A stretch of 43,375 bases of DNA from the NCBI GenBank assembly GCA_019240115.1, contig JAFAYV010000077.1:1-43375 (forward strand), written 5' to 3'. Positions within the stretch are counted from its first letter, which is position 1. The number at the start of each line of letters is the position of its first letter. Made by a program: the position numbers and the translations under genes. The stretch is from Solirubrobacterales bacterium. Lineage in GTDB: Bacteria > Actinomycetota > Thermoleophilia > Solirubrobacterales > Solirubrobacteraceae. Positions 37,130 through 41,447 of this stretch are shown one piece after another. The notes under the pieces are model-generated. The model worked only from the letters and a program-made list of their open reading frames with translations. It had not been told where the DNA came from and searched no databases.

Positions 37130-37846
37130 ATGGCGCGCGCACCGAGGCTCGCCGTCCGCGCCACCGCGACGGTGAGCGGCGGGGACCCCCGGGGTGACGT
37201 GCGCGGGCGCGCGCTCGAGCTGGGGGTGCGCGGGTGGGTGCGCGACGGGAAAGCGGGCCAGGTGCTCGTCCACGCCGAGGGCGACCCGGATGCGGTACGG
37301 GAGCTGCTCGACTCGCTCGCGCAGGACGCGCAGGTGCAGATCGCGCGCGTCGAGGGCCACGAGCAGTTCGCGATCCGCGGGGTCAGCGCCGGCGCCTTCG
37401 TCGTCCAGGAGCACCGGGCGACCGCGCACCACTTCGACTTCCGCCTCGAGGTCGAGGGCGTCATGCGCTCGTGGGCCGTGCCCAGGGGACCCTCGCTCGA
37501 CCCGGCGGTCAAGCGCTTCGCCGTCCAGGTCGAGGACCACAACATCTCCCACAACGCCTACGAGGGGCCCCGGGTCATCATCTGGGATCGCGGCACCTAC
37601 GAGCAGGGCGGCCGCGTGCCGTGGCCGGAGGCGCTGGACCGCGGGCATGCCGTGTTCGTCCTGCACGGCGAGAAGCTGCGCGGCGGGTTCGCGCTGCAGC
37701 GCACCCGCGGCGGCGACAAGCCCCAGTGGCTCTTGATCAAGCGCCGCGACGAGGACGCTCGCACCGGCTCAGACATCGTGGCGCAGGCGCCGCGGTCGGT
37801 GCTGAGCGGGCGGATGCTCGCCGAGAGCTCGCAGCGCGGCGCTTGA
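37130..37846 (+). CDS. Acylphosphatase-like domain fused to a LigD-type 3'-phosphoesterase
   Basis: The protein has 238 residues. Residues about 8-78 match acylphosphatase: ATVSG, a shortened P-loop (GDPRGDVR) whose last Arg (R25) falls where the catalytic Arg lies, GVRGWVRD (catalytic Asn replaced by D39) and QVLVHAEGDPDAVRELL. Residues about 88-215 are a LigD phosphoesterase (PE) domain: FVVQEH with H95, HHFDFRLE with H101 and D103, SWAVPRGPSLDP and VEDH with H137. The His/Asp spacing equals that of known PE domains (42, 48, 50, 84). The segment IPEGxYGAG that normally follows VEDH is missing. PE domains trim 3'-phosphates and 3'-ribonucleotides at DNA ends. No ligase, polymerase or Ku gene is present here. 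Confidence 0.82.
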   Translation: MARAPRLAVRATATVSGGDPRGDVRGRALELGVRGWVRDGKAGQVLVHAEGDPDAVRELLDSLAQDAQVQIARVEGHEQFAIRGVSAGAFVVQEHRATAHHFDFRLEVEGVMRSWAVPRGPSLDPAVKRFAVQVEDHNISHNAYEGPRVIIWDRGTYEQGGRVPWPEALDRGHAVFVLHGEKLRGGFALQRTRGGDKPQWLLIKRRDEDARTGSDIVAQAPRSVLSGRMLAESSQRGA

Positions 37847-37860
37847 CCAGAGGGTGGACT

Positions 37861-38288
37861 GGTCAGCTGCGTGCGTTCTTGATCTTGTCCAGGATCCCGC
37901 CGCCCGCGTCGTTCGTGCGCCATCGCGCCTGGTGGCCGTCGCCGGTCCGGGAGGTGGTGCGCTATCAGACCGGCGTGCTGCCGGTTCCCGGAGAGCCCCG
38001 CATCGTGTTTACGCCGGGACATACCCACGGGCATTGCGCGCTGCATCTCCCCGAGCGCGACGTCGTGATCGCGGGCGACGCCGTCGTCACGCTGGATCCC
38101 TAGACCGGCCGTACCGGGCCGGGATCGTCGCCGCCGCGGCGACGGTCGACACCCATCGCAGCAACCTCGAGTCGCTGCAGGCCATCGCCGACACCGCCGC
38201 GCGGACGGTTCTCGTCGGTCATAGCGATCCGTGGACACAGGGCGCCCGCGGCATCGTGCAGGCCGCCCGGAAGGCGGGACCGGCCTGA
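37861..38288 (+). pseudogene. Decayed metallo-beta-lactamase-fold hydrolase gene
   Basis: The first part (to 38100) reads PRIVFTPGHTHGHCALHLPERDVVIAGDAVVTLDP, which fits the middle of MBL-fold hydrolases. It is then stopped by TAG at 38101, where relatives have a Tyr codon (DPYTGR). The rest (IVAAAATVDTHRSNLESLQ, TVLVGHSDPW) continues in another frame after a one-base loss near 38115-38120. The N-terminal half with HxHxDH is missing. One truncation, one nonsense and one frameshift show that it is not functional. Confidence 0.8.
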
Positions 38289-38332: not shown

Positions 38333-39073
38333 CTACAGCGTGCGCACCATGACGAGCTCCTGCAGCGTCCGGCCGTGCGCCGTCCAGGTCGTCCGCTCGC
38401 GCACGGCGAACCCCGCGGCCGCGTAGGCGCGTCGGGCGGGCTCGTTCCCGATCACCACGTGCAGCTCGAGCTCGCGGGCGCCGCGCTCGGCGGCCCAGGC
38501 ACCGCACGCCTCGCACAACCGGCCCGCGCCGCCGCGCCCGCGGGCCTGGGGCGCGACCCACATGCCCAGCAGCCGGACGATCCCAGGGTGGTGGGGATCG
38601 ACCAGTGCCGACGAGAGTCCGAGCCAGCGGCCGGTCTCGTCGACCAGCACGAACGTCCGGCCCTCGAGCCCCGCCTCGGACCGCTGCGCCTGAGCGTGCC
38701 ACCAGGACGCTGAGCGGCCGGCCTCGCGCGCGTAGGTGGAGGCGAACACCTCGGGGTCGACCGCCAGCGCGGCGAGGCGGAGCTCGCGCAGGACGGCGTG
38801 CTCGCCGGCGCGGACGGGGCGCACCGACAGCCGGCCGCCCGGCGGCTCACGCACGGGCGGCGCCTCACCCACGGGCGGCGGCTCACGCACGGGCGGCGCC
38901 TCACCCACGGGCGGCGCCTCACCCACGGGCGGCGCCTCACCCACGGGCGGCGGCTCACCCACGGGCGGCGGCTCGCCCACCGGCGGCGGCTCACCCACCG
39001 GCGGCGGCTCACCCACGGTCGGCGGCTCACCCACGGACGGCGGCTCGCGGCCGGGCACGGAGTCGCCGCTCAC
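38333..39073 (-). CDS. GNAT acetyltransferase with minisatellite-coded N-terminal tail
   Basis: The protein has 246 residues if it starts at GTG 39073, which overlaps the upstream stop (GTGA). Residues 13-78 are eleven hexapeptides of the form PVGEPP. Residues about 84-246 are a GNAT domain: LSVRPVRAGEHAVLRELRL, WLGLSSALVDP, IVRLLGMWVAPQARGRGGAGRL (acetyl-CoA loop) and ELHVVIGNEPARRAYAAAGF. An in-frame GTG at 38824 would give the bare GNAT domain. The repeat is open over its whole length in frame, which favours translation but does not prove it. The substrate is unknown. Confidence 0.8.
   Translation of the reverse strand: MSGDSVPGREPPSVGEPPTVGEPPPVGEPPPVGEPPPVGEPPPVGEAPPVGEAPPVGEAPPVREPPPVGEAPPVREPPGGRLSVRPVRAGEHAVLRELRLAALAVDPEVFASTYAREAGRSASWWHAQAQRSEAGLEGRTFVLVDETGRWLGLSSALVDPHHPGIVRLLGMWVAPQARGRGGAGRLCEACGAWAAERGARELELHVVIGNEPARRAYAAAGFAVRERTTWTAHGRTLQELVMVRTL
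38840..39037 (-). repeat. 18-bp minisatellite, 11 units
   Basis: The unit is GGGCGGCGGCTCACCCAC on the plus strand, repeated without gaps with scattered one-base changes. Each unit adds six residues, so slippage keeps the frame of the GNAT gene. Confidence 0.92.
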
Positions 39074-40890
39074 CGCGACAGCAGGCTCCAGACGCTGCCG
39101 AGCAGCTCGGCGGCGTCGACGTTGCGTGCGAGCGTGCCCGCGAAGCCGGGCAGGCCGATGTCGACGACGCTGCCGCGCCCGAGGCGGTAGCCGACGATCG
39201 CGGGCCGCCCCGGGGTCGTGCCCGCGGCCGAGACGATCGCCGCCGGCGGGTCGACGCCGAGCACCGGCTGATCGGTGCCGTAGCCGCGCAGCGCTCCGGA
39301 GGTCTGGGTGAAGATCCGCAGCCGGTCGCGGTCGACGAAGATGAGCGCCCCGTGGGTCGAGGCGATCGGCCCCGGCCGGGCGAGCAGCGCATCGGAGGCG
39401 GCCGGCGGGGACGGATCCCGGGCCTCGCCGTCGGACACCGTCACCGTGCGCCGCAGCGAGTCGATGCCGAGCTCCAGGACGTGGCCGCCGCCCTGCACGA
39501 ACTCGCGCAGCGACGCGCCGAGCGCCCCCGGCAGCCAGGGCTCGTCGCCGGCGAGCACCACGCCGGTGCGCCCGCGCAGCGTCGCGGCGGTGGCCTCGGT
39601 CAGGGCGATGTCGGTCGTCAGGTCGAAGCGCAGTCCGGACCGCTGCAGATGCGCGACCAGCGCGGCCTCGTCGGCGAACCCGGACGGCAGGCCGTCGACG
39701 AGCGGCCGGCTCAGTCGGATCGGCTCACCGGCGGTCAAGGTGTTCGGGATCCCGTCGCCGTTGTCGTCGACCGGGTTGCGGCCCTGCCAGGTCAGCGCCG
39801 GCAGGACGACGAGCACCCGCGGTCGGCCGGCGCGCGCGGAGGCGACGAGGGGGATGGTCGTACGGTGCGGGCCCCAGCCCAGCGACAGCTCGTACAGGCC
39901 CGGTCCCGATCCCGGCAGCGCCACCCGCAGCGCCACGGCGGCGGTCGAGCCCGAGCGCAGCGTCCGCCGCCCGCCGGCCGCGCGCAGGGTCCAGGTGTAG
40001 CGCTGGCGGCGAGCGTCGACGTCGACGGTCGCCGTGTGCCCCGCGGGCACCGCGGTCAGCGGCGGCTGCGCCGCCAGGTAGCGGACGGTGACGCCGGCGT
40101 GCGCGGTCGATCCCGGCGTCGGCGGCAGCGAGGCGGGAAAGCGCGCGACGTTGCAGGCGGGGTCGGTCAGCTGCAGACCGACGAGGTAGGTGCCCTGGGG
40201 GGCAGGCCGGCCGCCGCTGAGCGTCCCGTTCCACAGGGTGCGGTGCCGATTGGTCGCGTCGTAGCGCTTGACGACGACCGCGCCGCCGGGCAGGTCGGTG
40301 CGGTAGATGACGACCTGAGGGCGCCGGCCCCCGCCGCCGGTGAAGCGCGCGACGACGGCGGCGCCGGACGCCTGCGGGATGAGCGCGGGCCGCACCGAGG
40401 TGACCGCGAGCGCCGGGGCGCGGGTCTCGATCGTGACCGTCTCGGGCCCGGCGGAGTTCGAGATCGTGAACGTGCGGCCCTGGTGGATGAGCGACACGCG
40501 CACGTAGTAGGTGCCGTCGGAGGCGACGCTGCCGTCGTCACGACGCCCGTCCCAGGTGAACTCGACGCGGTGGTCGATCGCCATGTGGCGCCCCGAGGCG
40601 AGGGTGTCGACGATCGCGCCGTCCTGGTCGACGATGTAGACGTCGACGTCGTCGGCGCGGTGCTGCAGGTAGAACGAGATCCGCATCCGGCGAAAGCTCG
40701 TCGGGACGCGCTCGCCGAGCGGGTTGCGCACCTTGCAGACGCGGCCGCTGACGGGGTTGAACGCCGCCGGGACGGGCGCGGGCGAGCCCTGCAGCAGCGG
40801 CGTGGTCACCTTCAGGTGCTGGGTGACGAAGAAGGCCGCCACCGTGGCGATCACCAGCGCGACGAACGCCGCGACCGGCAACCGCCTCAC
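39070..40890 (-). CDS. Membrane-anchored protein with FlgD-type Ig repeats and an amidotransferase-like C-terminal domain
   Basis: The protein has 606 residues. A signal anchor (VAAFVALVIATVAAFFV) precedes two FlgD-Ig-like modules, recognisable by VEFTWDGRRDDGSVASDGTYYVRVSL and LWNGTLSGGRPAPQGTYLVGLQL. The C-terminal part (GRPRVLVVLPALTWQGRNPVDDNGDG; RTGVVLAGDEPWLPGALGASLREFVQGGGHVLELG) resembles the N,N-dimethylformamidase-large-subunit or GAT-like fold. No catalytic Cys is visible at the expected nucleophile. It is most likely an extracytoplasmic binding protein. The start overlaps the histidine phosphatase stop. Confidence 0.72.
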   Translation of the reverse strand: MRRLPVAAFVALVIATVAAFFVTQHLKVTTPLLQGSPAPVPAAFNPVSGRVCKVRNPLGERVPTSFRRMRISFYLQHRADDVDVYIVDQDGAIVDTLASGRHMAIDHRVEFTWDGRRDDGSVASDGTYYVRVSLIHQGRTFTISNSAGPETVTIETRAPALAVTSVRPALIPQASGAAVVARFTGGGGRRPQVVIYRTDLPGGAVVVKRYDATNRHRTLWNGTLSGGRPAPQGTYLVGLQLTDPACNVARFPASLPPTPGSTAHAGVTVRYLAAQPPLTAVPAGHTATVDVDARRQRYTWTLRAAGGRRTLRSGSTAAVALRVALPGSGPGLYELSLGWGPHRTTIPLVASARAGRPRVLVVLPALTWQGRNPVDDNGDGIPNTLTAGEPIRLSRPLVDGLPSGFADEAALVAHLQRSGLRFDLTTDIALTEATAATLRGRTGVVLAGDEPWLPGALGASLREFVQGGGHVLELGIDSLRRTVTVSDGEARDPSPPAASDALLARPGPIASTHGALIFVDRDRLRIFTQTSGALRGYGTDQPVLGVDPPAAIVSAAGTTPGRPAIVGYRLGRGSVVDIGLPGFAGTLARNVDAAELLGSVWSLLSR

Positions 40891-41447
40891 AGCGATACCA
40901 CCGCCACGTTGGGAACCTGGAAGTCGTGGAAGGCGTTCAGACCGCGGGAGTCCGAAGCGCACAGCATCACGCGGATGCTCCCGCCGTGGCAGACGACGAG
41001 CGCAGGCAGCGGGCCGACGCGGTGGATGTCCGAGAGGGCGGCGCTCACCCGCTGCTGCTGCTCGAGCAGCGACTCACCGCCGGGGAAGCGGAAGTCGGGC
41101 CCGGCGCGCCGCCAGGCGGCGTAGCGCTCGGGCTCATCGCGCTGGACCTCGGCGAACAGGTGCCCCTCCCAGCGCCCGCGGAAGCCCTCGCGCAGGCGGG
41201 GATCGAGCGTCGCCGCGAGGTCGACGCGGTCGCCGACGATCTCCGCGGTCACGCGCGCCCGACTGAGGTCCGAGGACCACAGGGAGCCGATCGGCGTTCG
41301 CCGCGCGGCGATCGCGTCGGCGAGGTCGGCGGCCTGACGGCGCCCGGTGGCGTTCAGCGGGGTGTCGGTGAACCCCTGGAAGCGCGGCGGCTCGAGGTTG
41401 TCGTCGGTCTCGCCGTGTCGAGCGAGCAGCACTCCGTCGAGATCCAT
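40887..41447 (-). CDS. Histidine phosphatase (phosphoglycerate-mutase-like)
   Basis: The protein has 186 residues. Motifs: VLLARHGETDDN (phospho-His), FQGFTDTPLNATGRRQA, LWSSDLSRARVTAEI, LREGFRGRWEGH and ALVVCHGGSIRVML (second His). These are the complete RHG active site. It hydrolyses a small phosphomonoester. It starts only ten bases after the ComA gene and is coupled to the following gene, so its substrate may be the ComA product or a related compound. ATG at 41447 gives the usual N-terminus. Confidence 0.9.
   Translation of the reverse strand: MDLDGVLLARHGETDDNLEPPRFQGFTDTPLNATGRRQAADLADAIAARRTPIGSLWSSDLSRARVTAEIVGDRVDLAATLDPRLREGFRGRWEGHLFAEVQRDEPERYAAWRRAGPDFRFPGGESLLEQQQRVSAALSDIHRVGPLPALVVCHGGSIRVMLCASDSRGLNAFHDFQVPNVAVVSL

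What the first reader, a model, noticed from the sequence alone, without database searches (positions are those of the whole stretch)
37130..37846. Acylphosphatase-like domain fused to a stand-alone LigD 3'-phosphoesterase
The sequence shows an acylphosphatase-like N-terminus (ATVSG, Arg at the catalytic place, GWVRD) followed by a PE domain with ligands H95, H101, D103, H137 at the spacing of known PE domains. To my knowledge this pairing is not a standard architecture. Both halves are modified: the acylphosphatase Asn is Asp with a shortened P-loop, and the PE lacks the IPEGxYGAG loop. Inference: a small DNA- or RNA-end processing enzyme whose N-terminal module binds a phosphate or acyl phosphate.
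Basis: partly seen in the sequence, partly recalled or inferred. Interest (0 to 1): 0.75.

Follow-up and report, generated by a model that had tools for sequence, protein, structure and literature searches.

The report
Acylphosphatase-like domain fused to DNA-end phosphoesterase
The gene encodes a real two-part protein, found so far only in one order of soil actinobacteria, in which an acylphosphatase-type domain is joined to a DNA 3'-end repair enzyme domain; across its relatives each of the two active sites has been lost repeatedly while a shared motif stays unchanged, so the joint protein probably has a job that nobody has described.

Summary
Window 37130-37846 encodes 238 aa with an acylphosphatase (AcP) fold (residues 5-84) and a LigD-type 3'-phosphoesterase (PE) fold (85-238), both above Pfam cut-offs. 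The AlphaFold2 model (pLDDT 94.6) matches solved AcPs (Z 14.4) and LigD PE (Z 23.9). The fusion is a single-origin family of at least 78 distinct proteins, found only in the window's own order (Solirubrobacterales by record titles). In the window copy the PE ligands are intact (H95, H101, D103, R105, H137). Both active sites decay recurrently: 36 proteins have both, 27 only the PE site, 8 only the AcP site, 7 neither complete. Two fusion-specific motifs, EGHEQFAxRG (end of AcP) and YEQGGRVxWPxAxxRGHAVF (PE), stay near-invariant in all. Best reading for the window: an active metal-dependent 3'-end phosphoesterase with a catalytically dead AcP module, held together by a conserved interdomain or partner-binding surface. 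A new architecture of two known families; biochemistry untested.

The parts
37130..37846 (+). AcP-PE fusion gene, 238 aa plus stop; ATG start
   Evidence: ORF; relatives begin at about the same place
37142..37381 (+). Acylphosphatase-fold domain, residues 5-84
   Evidence: Pfam PF00708 1.4e-7; VIA Z 14.4 to 1w2i, 1.4 A over 80 residues
37169..37192 (+). Degenerate AcP phosphate loop (TVSGGDPR, residues 14-21), ending in the retained Arg21
   Evidence: alignment with relatives that keep VQGVGFR
37244..37246 (+). Asp39 in place of the catalytic Asn41 of AcP
   Evidence: role of Arg23/Asn41 from PMC8147672
37352..37399 (+). Fusion-specific motif EGHEQFAIRGVSAGAF, residues 75-90 (last AcP strand and linker)
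   Evidence: 97-100% conserved in 78 fusions at E75, G76, H77, E78, Q79, F80, R83, G84, G88, F90
37382..37843 (+). LigD-type 3'-phosphoesterase barrel, residues 85-238
   Evidence: Pfam PF13298 4.6e-30; VIA Z 23.9 to 3n9b, 1.4 A over 143 residues
37412..37414 (+). His95 = metal ligand His42 of P. aeruginosa PE
   Evidence: PMC8656161
37430..37438 (+). His101 and Asp103 = metal ligands His48 and Asp50
37538..37552 (+). His137 = phosphate ligand His84; His141 takes the place of Tyr88
   Evidence: His at the Tyr88 place in 49 of 63 PE-intact fusions
37565..37573 (+). Site of the missing mobile cap loop (IPEGxYGAG of other PEs)
   Evidence: alignment with 3n9b and 5dmp
37598..37648 (+). Fusion-specific motif YEQGGRVPWPEALDRGH, residues 157-173
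   Evidence: E158, G161, V163, W165, P166 and R171 invariant in 78 fusions; not typical of stand-alone and LigD PEs

Best explanation
A stand-alone acylphosphatase gene became fused in frame, once, to a stand-alone PE gene in an ancestor within the Solirubrobacterales (origin by fusion inferred; single origin supported by the tree). In the window copy the PE half is probably the working enzyme: Mn2+ (or a similar metal) held by H95, H101 and D103, the scissile phosphate held by R105 and H137, with H141 in the place of Tyr88, removing a 3'-terminal ribonucleoside or 3'-phosphate from a nucleic acid end. The AcP half is probably catalytically dead. It sits where LigD carries its flexible N-terminal arm, and the mobile cap loop is also gone, so it most likely acts as a fixed lid, substrate-selection or docking module. 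The conserved EGHEQFAxRG and YEQGGRVxWPxAxxRGH motifs most likely form the contact between the halves or a partner- or nucleic-acid-binding surface on it. Shown: domains, folds, residues, family, single origin, recurrent decay of both active sites, invariance of the motifs. Inferred: catalysis, substrate, AcP role, spatial meeting of the motifs.
For: Both domains by profile and by fold. PE ligands all kept in the window and in 63 of 78 fusions. Fusion PEs form one side of a branch against PE-only proteins, 93/89 support, 94% of bootstrap trees. The window falls in a 10-member clade, all with incomplete AcP sites, support 95/91. Fusion-specific motifs near-invariant in all 78. The AcP stands where LigD PEs have the arm with Arg14, Arg15 and Glu21, which is needed for 3'-phosphatase but not for 3'-ribonucleoside removal (PMC8656161). 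The genome also carries Ku, a LigD with PE, a canonical stand-alone PE, HypF and a normal stand-alone acylphosphatase, so the fusion is an extra, specialised protein.
Against: Tyr88, essential in P. aeruginosa PE, is His here. A derived clade and two further members have lost the PE metal ligands (15 of 78), so 3'-end catalysis is not the feature that selection keeps everywhere. No conserved gene neighbourhood ties it to repair. Ku is present in 76 of 79 fusion genomes against 95 of 153 others (p 1.5e-9), but within the own genus the difference is not significant (p 0.42), and two fusion genomes over 90% complete (G238, G379) have no Ku match.
Confidence: 0.5

Rival explanations
1. A third-site protein: the conserved EGHEQF / YEQGGRVxWP surface is the real function (binding a partner protein, nucleic acid or ligand) and both old active sites are dispensable, so the family is turning into a binding protein.
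For: 7 of 78 fusions have both sites incomplete, 5 of them lacking both the AcP Arg and Asn, yet keep the motifs at 86-100%. One of the seven (L036) is still modelled as the same two folds at pLDDT 94.2, Z 18.6 to AcP and 17.6 to PE. dN/dS in pairs that include PE-dead members is about 0.26-0.71.
Against: Most members (63 of 78) keep every PE metal ligand, which a pure binding protein would not need. The motifs may simply be a structural domain interface.
Confidence: 0.25
2. A two-step enzyme: the PE cuts a 3' end and the AcP half hydrolyses an acyl-phosphate, carbamoyl-phosphate or other high-energy phosphate on the same substrate or product; the window lineage has lost the second step.
For: 36 of 78 members keep a complete AcP site (R, N and VQGVGFR-type loop) together with a complete PE site; the PE-dead group is nested inside PE-intact fusions, so PE-intact looks ancestral.
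Against: To my knowledge no nucleic-acid end carries an acyl phosphate that LigD PE would expose. The AcP site was lost several times while the PE site was kept, and the reverse also occurs, so the two steps are not tightly coupled.
Confidence: 0.15
3. The gene is decaying and without function in the window: a relic of a lineage-specific fusion.
For: AcP site degenerate; long end branch of the window in the full-length tree (0.61); absent from many genomes of the own genus.
Against: Open frame, all PE metal ligands and both motifs kept; 82% identity of the PE part to L146; the AcP-degenerate pair L005/L019 has dN/dS about 0.19.
Confidence: 0.1

Closest known systems
LigD 3'-phosphoesterase superfamily (PF13298; P. 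aeruginosa LigD PE 3n9b, Methanocella PE 5dmp, Korarchaeum and Methanosarcina PEs)
   Same: PE barrel, H-H-D metal ligands, R52, S61, R76, H84 and W/D/G core; Z 23.9 to 3n9b
   Different: Fused to AcP in place of the N-terminal arm; no cap loop; Tyr88 is His; extra YEQGGRVxWP motif; no POL or LIG domains
Acylphosphatase (PF00708; P. horikoshii 1w2i, B. subtilis 3br8)
   Same: AcP fold, Z 14.4 to 1w2i; Arg at the catalytic place; GWV and EG landmarks
   Different: Phosphate loop shortened, Asn is Asp; last strand carries EGHEQFAxRG; fused to PE
HypF N-terminal acylphosphatase-like domain
   Same: A well-known case of an AcP domain fused N-terminally to another enzyme (general knowledge; the genome's own HypF-like gene is at L072)
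   Different: HypF continues with zinc-finger, YrdC-like and carbamoyl-transferase parts; no PE

Membership tests
LigD 3'-phosphoesterase superfamily | Profile match PF13298 over the curated cut-off | tested here: met
   104.4 bits against 31.1; 47 of 47 aligned fusions match at E<=0.001
LigD 3'-phosphoesterase superfamily | PE barrel fold | tested here: met
   VIA Z 23.9, 1.4 A over 143 residues to 3n9b_B
LigD 3'-phosphoesterase superfamily | Metal ligands H42, H48, D50 and phosphate ligands R52, H84 | tested here: met
   H95, H101, D103, R105, H137
LigD 3'-phosphoesterase superfamily | Mn-dependent 3'-phosphatase and 3'-ribonuclease activity | not testable with these tools
   needs an enzyme assay
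LigD-embedded (P. aeruginosa-type) PE subtype | Tyr88 phosphate ligand | tested here: not met
   His141; 6 of 16 PE-only comparison proteins also lack Tyr here, so this does not define the superfamily
LigD-embedded (P. aeruginosa-type) PE subtype | N-terminal arm (Arg14, Arg15, Glu21) and cap loop IPEGxYGAG | tested here: not met
   AcP domain stands in place of the arm; loop deleted
Acylphosphatase enzyme (EC 3.6.1.7) | AcP fold and profile match | tested here: met
   PF00708 32.1 bits against 22.5; Z 14.4 to 1w2i
Acylphosphatase enzyme (EC 3.6.1.7) | Catalytic Arg23 | tested here: met
   Arg21 at that column
Acylphosphatase enzyme (EC 3.6.1.7) | Catalytic Asn41 and intact phosphate loop (VQGVxFR) | tested here: not met
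   Asp39; loop TVSGGDPR. The window copy is filed as a structural relative, not as an acylphosphatase
LigD / NHEJ ligase | POL and/or LIG domains in the same protein | tested here: not met
   only the two domains found in 238 aa
LigD / NHEJ ligase | Linked to Ku by gene neighbourhood or strict co-occurrence | tested here: inconclusive
   Ku in 76 of 79 fusion genomes against 95 of 153 others, but p 0.42 within the own genus; no conserved neighbours

The most novel reading that the evidence does not exclude
The fusion created a new functional surface spanning the AcP and PE folds (EGHEQFAxRG plus YEQGGRVxWPxAxxRGHAVF). This surface, and not either inherited active site, is what selection preserves across the order, giving a new kind of nucleic-acid-end or repair-protein binding factor built from two old enzymes, in which each catalytic site is an optional, repeatedly lost extra.
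Probability: 0.25. Interest if true: 0.75.

Novelty: new variant of a known kind. Interest (0 to 1): 0.55.

Why it matters
The physiological role of acylphosphatases is, to my knowledge, still unsettled. A lineage that hard-wires one to a DNA 3'-end repair enzyme gives a direct handle: members with both sites, either site or neither site exist and can be compared side by side. It also shows that PE-domain hits in NHEJ surveys need not mean LigD-type function, since 15 of 78 of these proteins have lost metal ligands, and those tested still score as LigD_N. I found no description of the architecture in the held open-access library, which does not cover most subscription papers.

Tried and rejected
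Chance or frame artefact: rejected (78 homologues, both Pfam cut-offs passed, model pLDDT 94.6). Operon context: clustering of flanking ORFs in 35 loci gave no neighbour shared by more than 4 loci apart from antisense shadows of the gene itself. Anti-phage system: no PADLOC match. Wider spread: no fusion outside the order in 396 genomes sampled across the phylum at E<=1e-57, nor in the pattern-based scan of 84,980 species genomes (it needs an exact short peptide, so divergent fusions could be missed). A few MAG records in that scan carry odd or vague labels (L030, L035). Two papers on archaeal PE and on PE NMR are not held. No model coordinates were available, so the spatial meeting of the two motifs could not be tested. 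dN/dS values are rough because of strong GC bias and high divergence. A crude charge count of the domains gave no sign of a basic DNA-binding AcP (median -3).

Full report
OBSERVATION. The ORF at 37130-37846 (+) encodes 238 aa. Pfam assigns LigD_N (PF13298, 4.6e-30, residues 93-191) and Acylphosphatase (PF00708, 1.4e-7, residues 21-77), both above curated cut-offs; NCBIfam gives the same picture at sub-cut-off level, and PDB sequence hits are LigD PEs for the C-terminal part and acylphosphatases for the N-terminal part. AlphaFold2 on an alignment of 35 family members gave pLDDT 94.6 and pTM 0.82. The structural second look matched residues 85-230 to P. aeruginosa LigD PE 3n9b (Z 23.9, 1.4 A, 143 residues) and residues 5-84 to acylphosphatase 1w2i (Z 14.4, 1.4 A, 80 residues). 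The AcP loop is shortened and the PE cap loop is missing.

FAMILY. A scan of species genomes found 34 loci with the fusion; the records that carry names are Solirubrobacterales, Conexibacter, Paraconexibacter and Svornostia, plus a few loosely labelled MAGs. Searches of whole genomes found full-length matches in three families of the window's own order and none elsewhere in a phylum-wide sample of 396 genomes at E<=1e-57. By my count 79 of 232 genomes of the order hold it. After removing duplicates, 78 distinct fusion proteins were aligned. In a PE-domain tree with PE-only proteins, the fusions form one side of a branch (93/89; 94% of bootstraps), consistent with one origin. The window genome separately holds Ku, a LigD with PE, a canonical stand-alone PE, a HypF-like gene and an ordinary acylphosphatase with VQGVFFR and TNRDDG landmarks, so the fusion does not replace any of these.

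STATE OF THE TWO ACTIVE SITES. Scoring AcP (Arg, Asn and the VxG..F/YR loop) and PE (H42, H48, D50, H84): both complete 36; PE only 27; AcP only 8; neither complete 7. The AcP rule is strict: three of the 27 miss only a loop residue or are cut at the start of a contig (L112, L126, L026), and two of the seven keep the Arg and lack only the Asn (L036, L048). On the full-length tree the four states need 16 changes against 35 for shuffled labels: decay happened several times, in both directions, but is clustered. The window lies in a clade of 10, all AcP-incomplete (95/91). The main PE-dead group is nested inside PE-intact fusions in the PE tree (96/95), so the PE-intact state looks ancestral; L029 and L164 fall elsewhere and look like additional PE losses. 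In PE-intact fusions R52, S61, R76 and H84 are 63/63, Tyr88 is His in 49/63 and Glu82 is variable (25/63 Glu).

WHAT NEVER CHANGES. Columns conserved at 97% or more in all 78 and not typical of PE-only proteins include R10, G35, W36, E50, G51, E75, G76, H77, E78, Q79, F80, R83, G84, G88 on the AcP side and E158, G161, R162, V163, W165, P166, R171, A174, Q190 on the PE side. They persist in the seven proteins with both sites incomplete. One of these, L036, is still modelled confidently as the same two folds (pLDDT 94.2; Z 18.6 to AcP, 17.6 to PE), and all 47 tested members match LigD_N and 40 match Acylphosphatase. Pairwise dN/dS is 0.19-0.71, rough but below 1. The simplest reading is a conserved domain interface; the alternative is a new binding site.

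MECHANISM. The 3n9b-type site is complete in the window except for Tyr88. The review PMC8656161 reports that H42, H48, D50, H84 and Y88 are essential in P. aeruginosa, that Arg14, Arg15, Glu21 and Glu82 are needed for 3'-phosphatase but not for 3'-ribonucleoside removal, and that a mobile loop probably caps the site. In the fusion the AcP domain stands in place of the arm and the loop is deleted. I infer a metal-dependent 3'-ribonuclease/phosphoesterase whose end selection is set by a fixed, non-catalytic AcP module. PMC8147672 gives the roles of AcP Arg23 and Asn41; the window has the first and not the second. Substrate and pathway are not shown. Ku is present in 76 of 79 fusion genomes against 95 of 153 others (p 1.5e-9), but this is confounded by genus and genome size, and within the own genus it is 9/11 against 11/17, p 0.42. 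There is no conserved neighbourhood; in the window the neighbours are glycan genes and unrelated enzymes.

NOVELTY. No paper in the held library joins acylphosphatase with LigD phosphoesterase, an AcP domain with fusion and DNA repair, or acylphosphatase with Solirubrobacter; a survey of bacterial NHEJ domains does not mention acylphosphatase or stand-alone PEs (PMC7719229). Automatic annotation pipelines will already list both domains for many of these proteins, so the architecture is recorded implicitly but, as far as I could see, not discussed. I file it as a new variant: two known families in a new, lineage-specific combination with an unusual pattern of reciprocal active-site loss.

Noticed in passing
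37897-38100 (+), directly downstream: Remnant of a metallo-beta-lactamase-fold hydrolase (PF00753, 1.4e-6, only profile positions 100-153 of 196) that stops early; a following frame (38106-38285) looks like its C-terminal end but has no Pfam match. Probably a truncated, frameshifted pseudogene.
   Followed up: partly
38333-39073 (-): GNAT acetyltransferase with an N-terminal run of VGEPPPVGEAPP-type repeats, which also keep long antisense frames open.
   Followed up: no
39070-40962 (-): 630-aa protein with a FlgD Ig-like domain and a DMFA2_C-like domain, an odd pairing.
   Followed up: no
L088 (G157) and L076 (G047): Stand-alone PEs over 60% identical to the fusion PE. L088 lacks the cap loop and has His at the Tyr88 place like the fusions, but has no AcP and no YEQGGRVxWP motif; it could be a pre-fusion intermediate or a secondary loss.
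   Followed up: partly
L030: Contig labelled Bifidobacterium breve MAG carries the fusion with the same neighbouring genes as Solirubrobacterales loci L027 and L034: almost certainly a mislabelled or mis-binned record.
   Followed up: partly
L084 and L089 (G228, G272): A divergent stand-alone PE subtype (FVVGLHDATTLHFDLRL, no Tyr88) in genomes whose fusion PE has lost its metal ligands.
   Followed up: no
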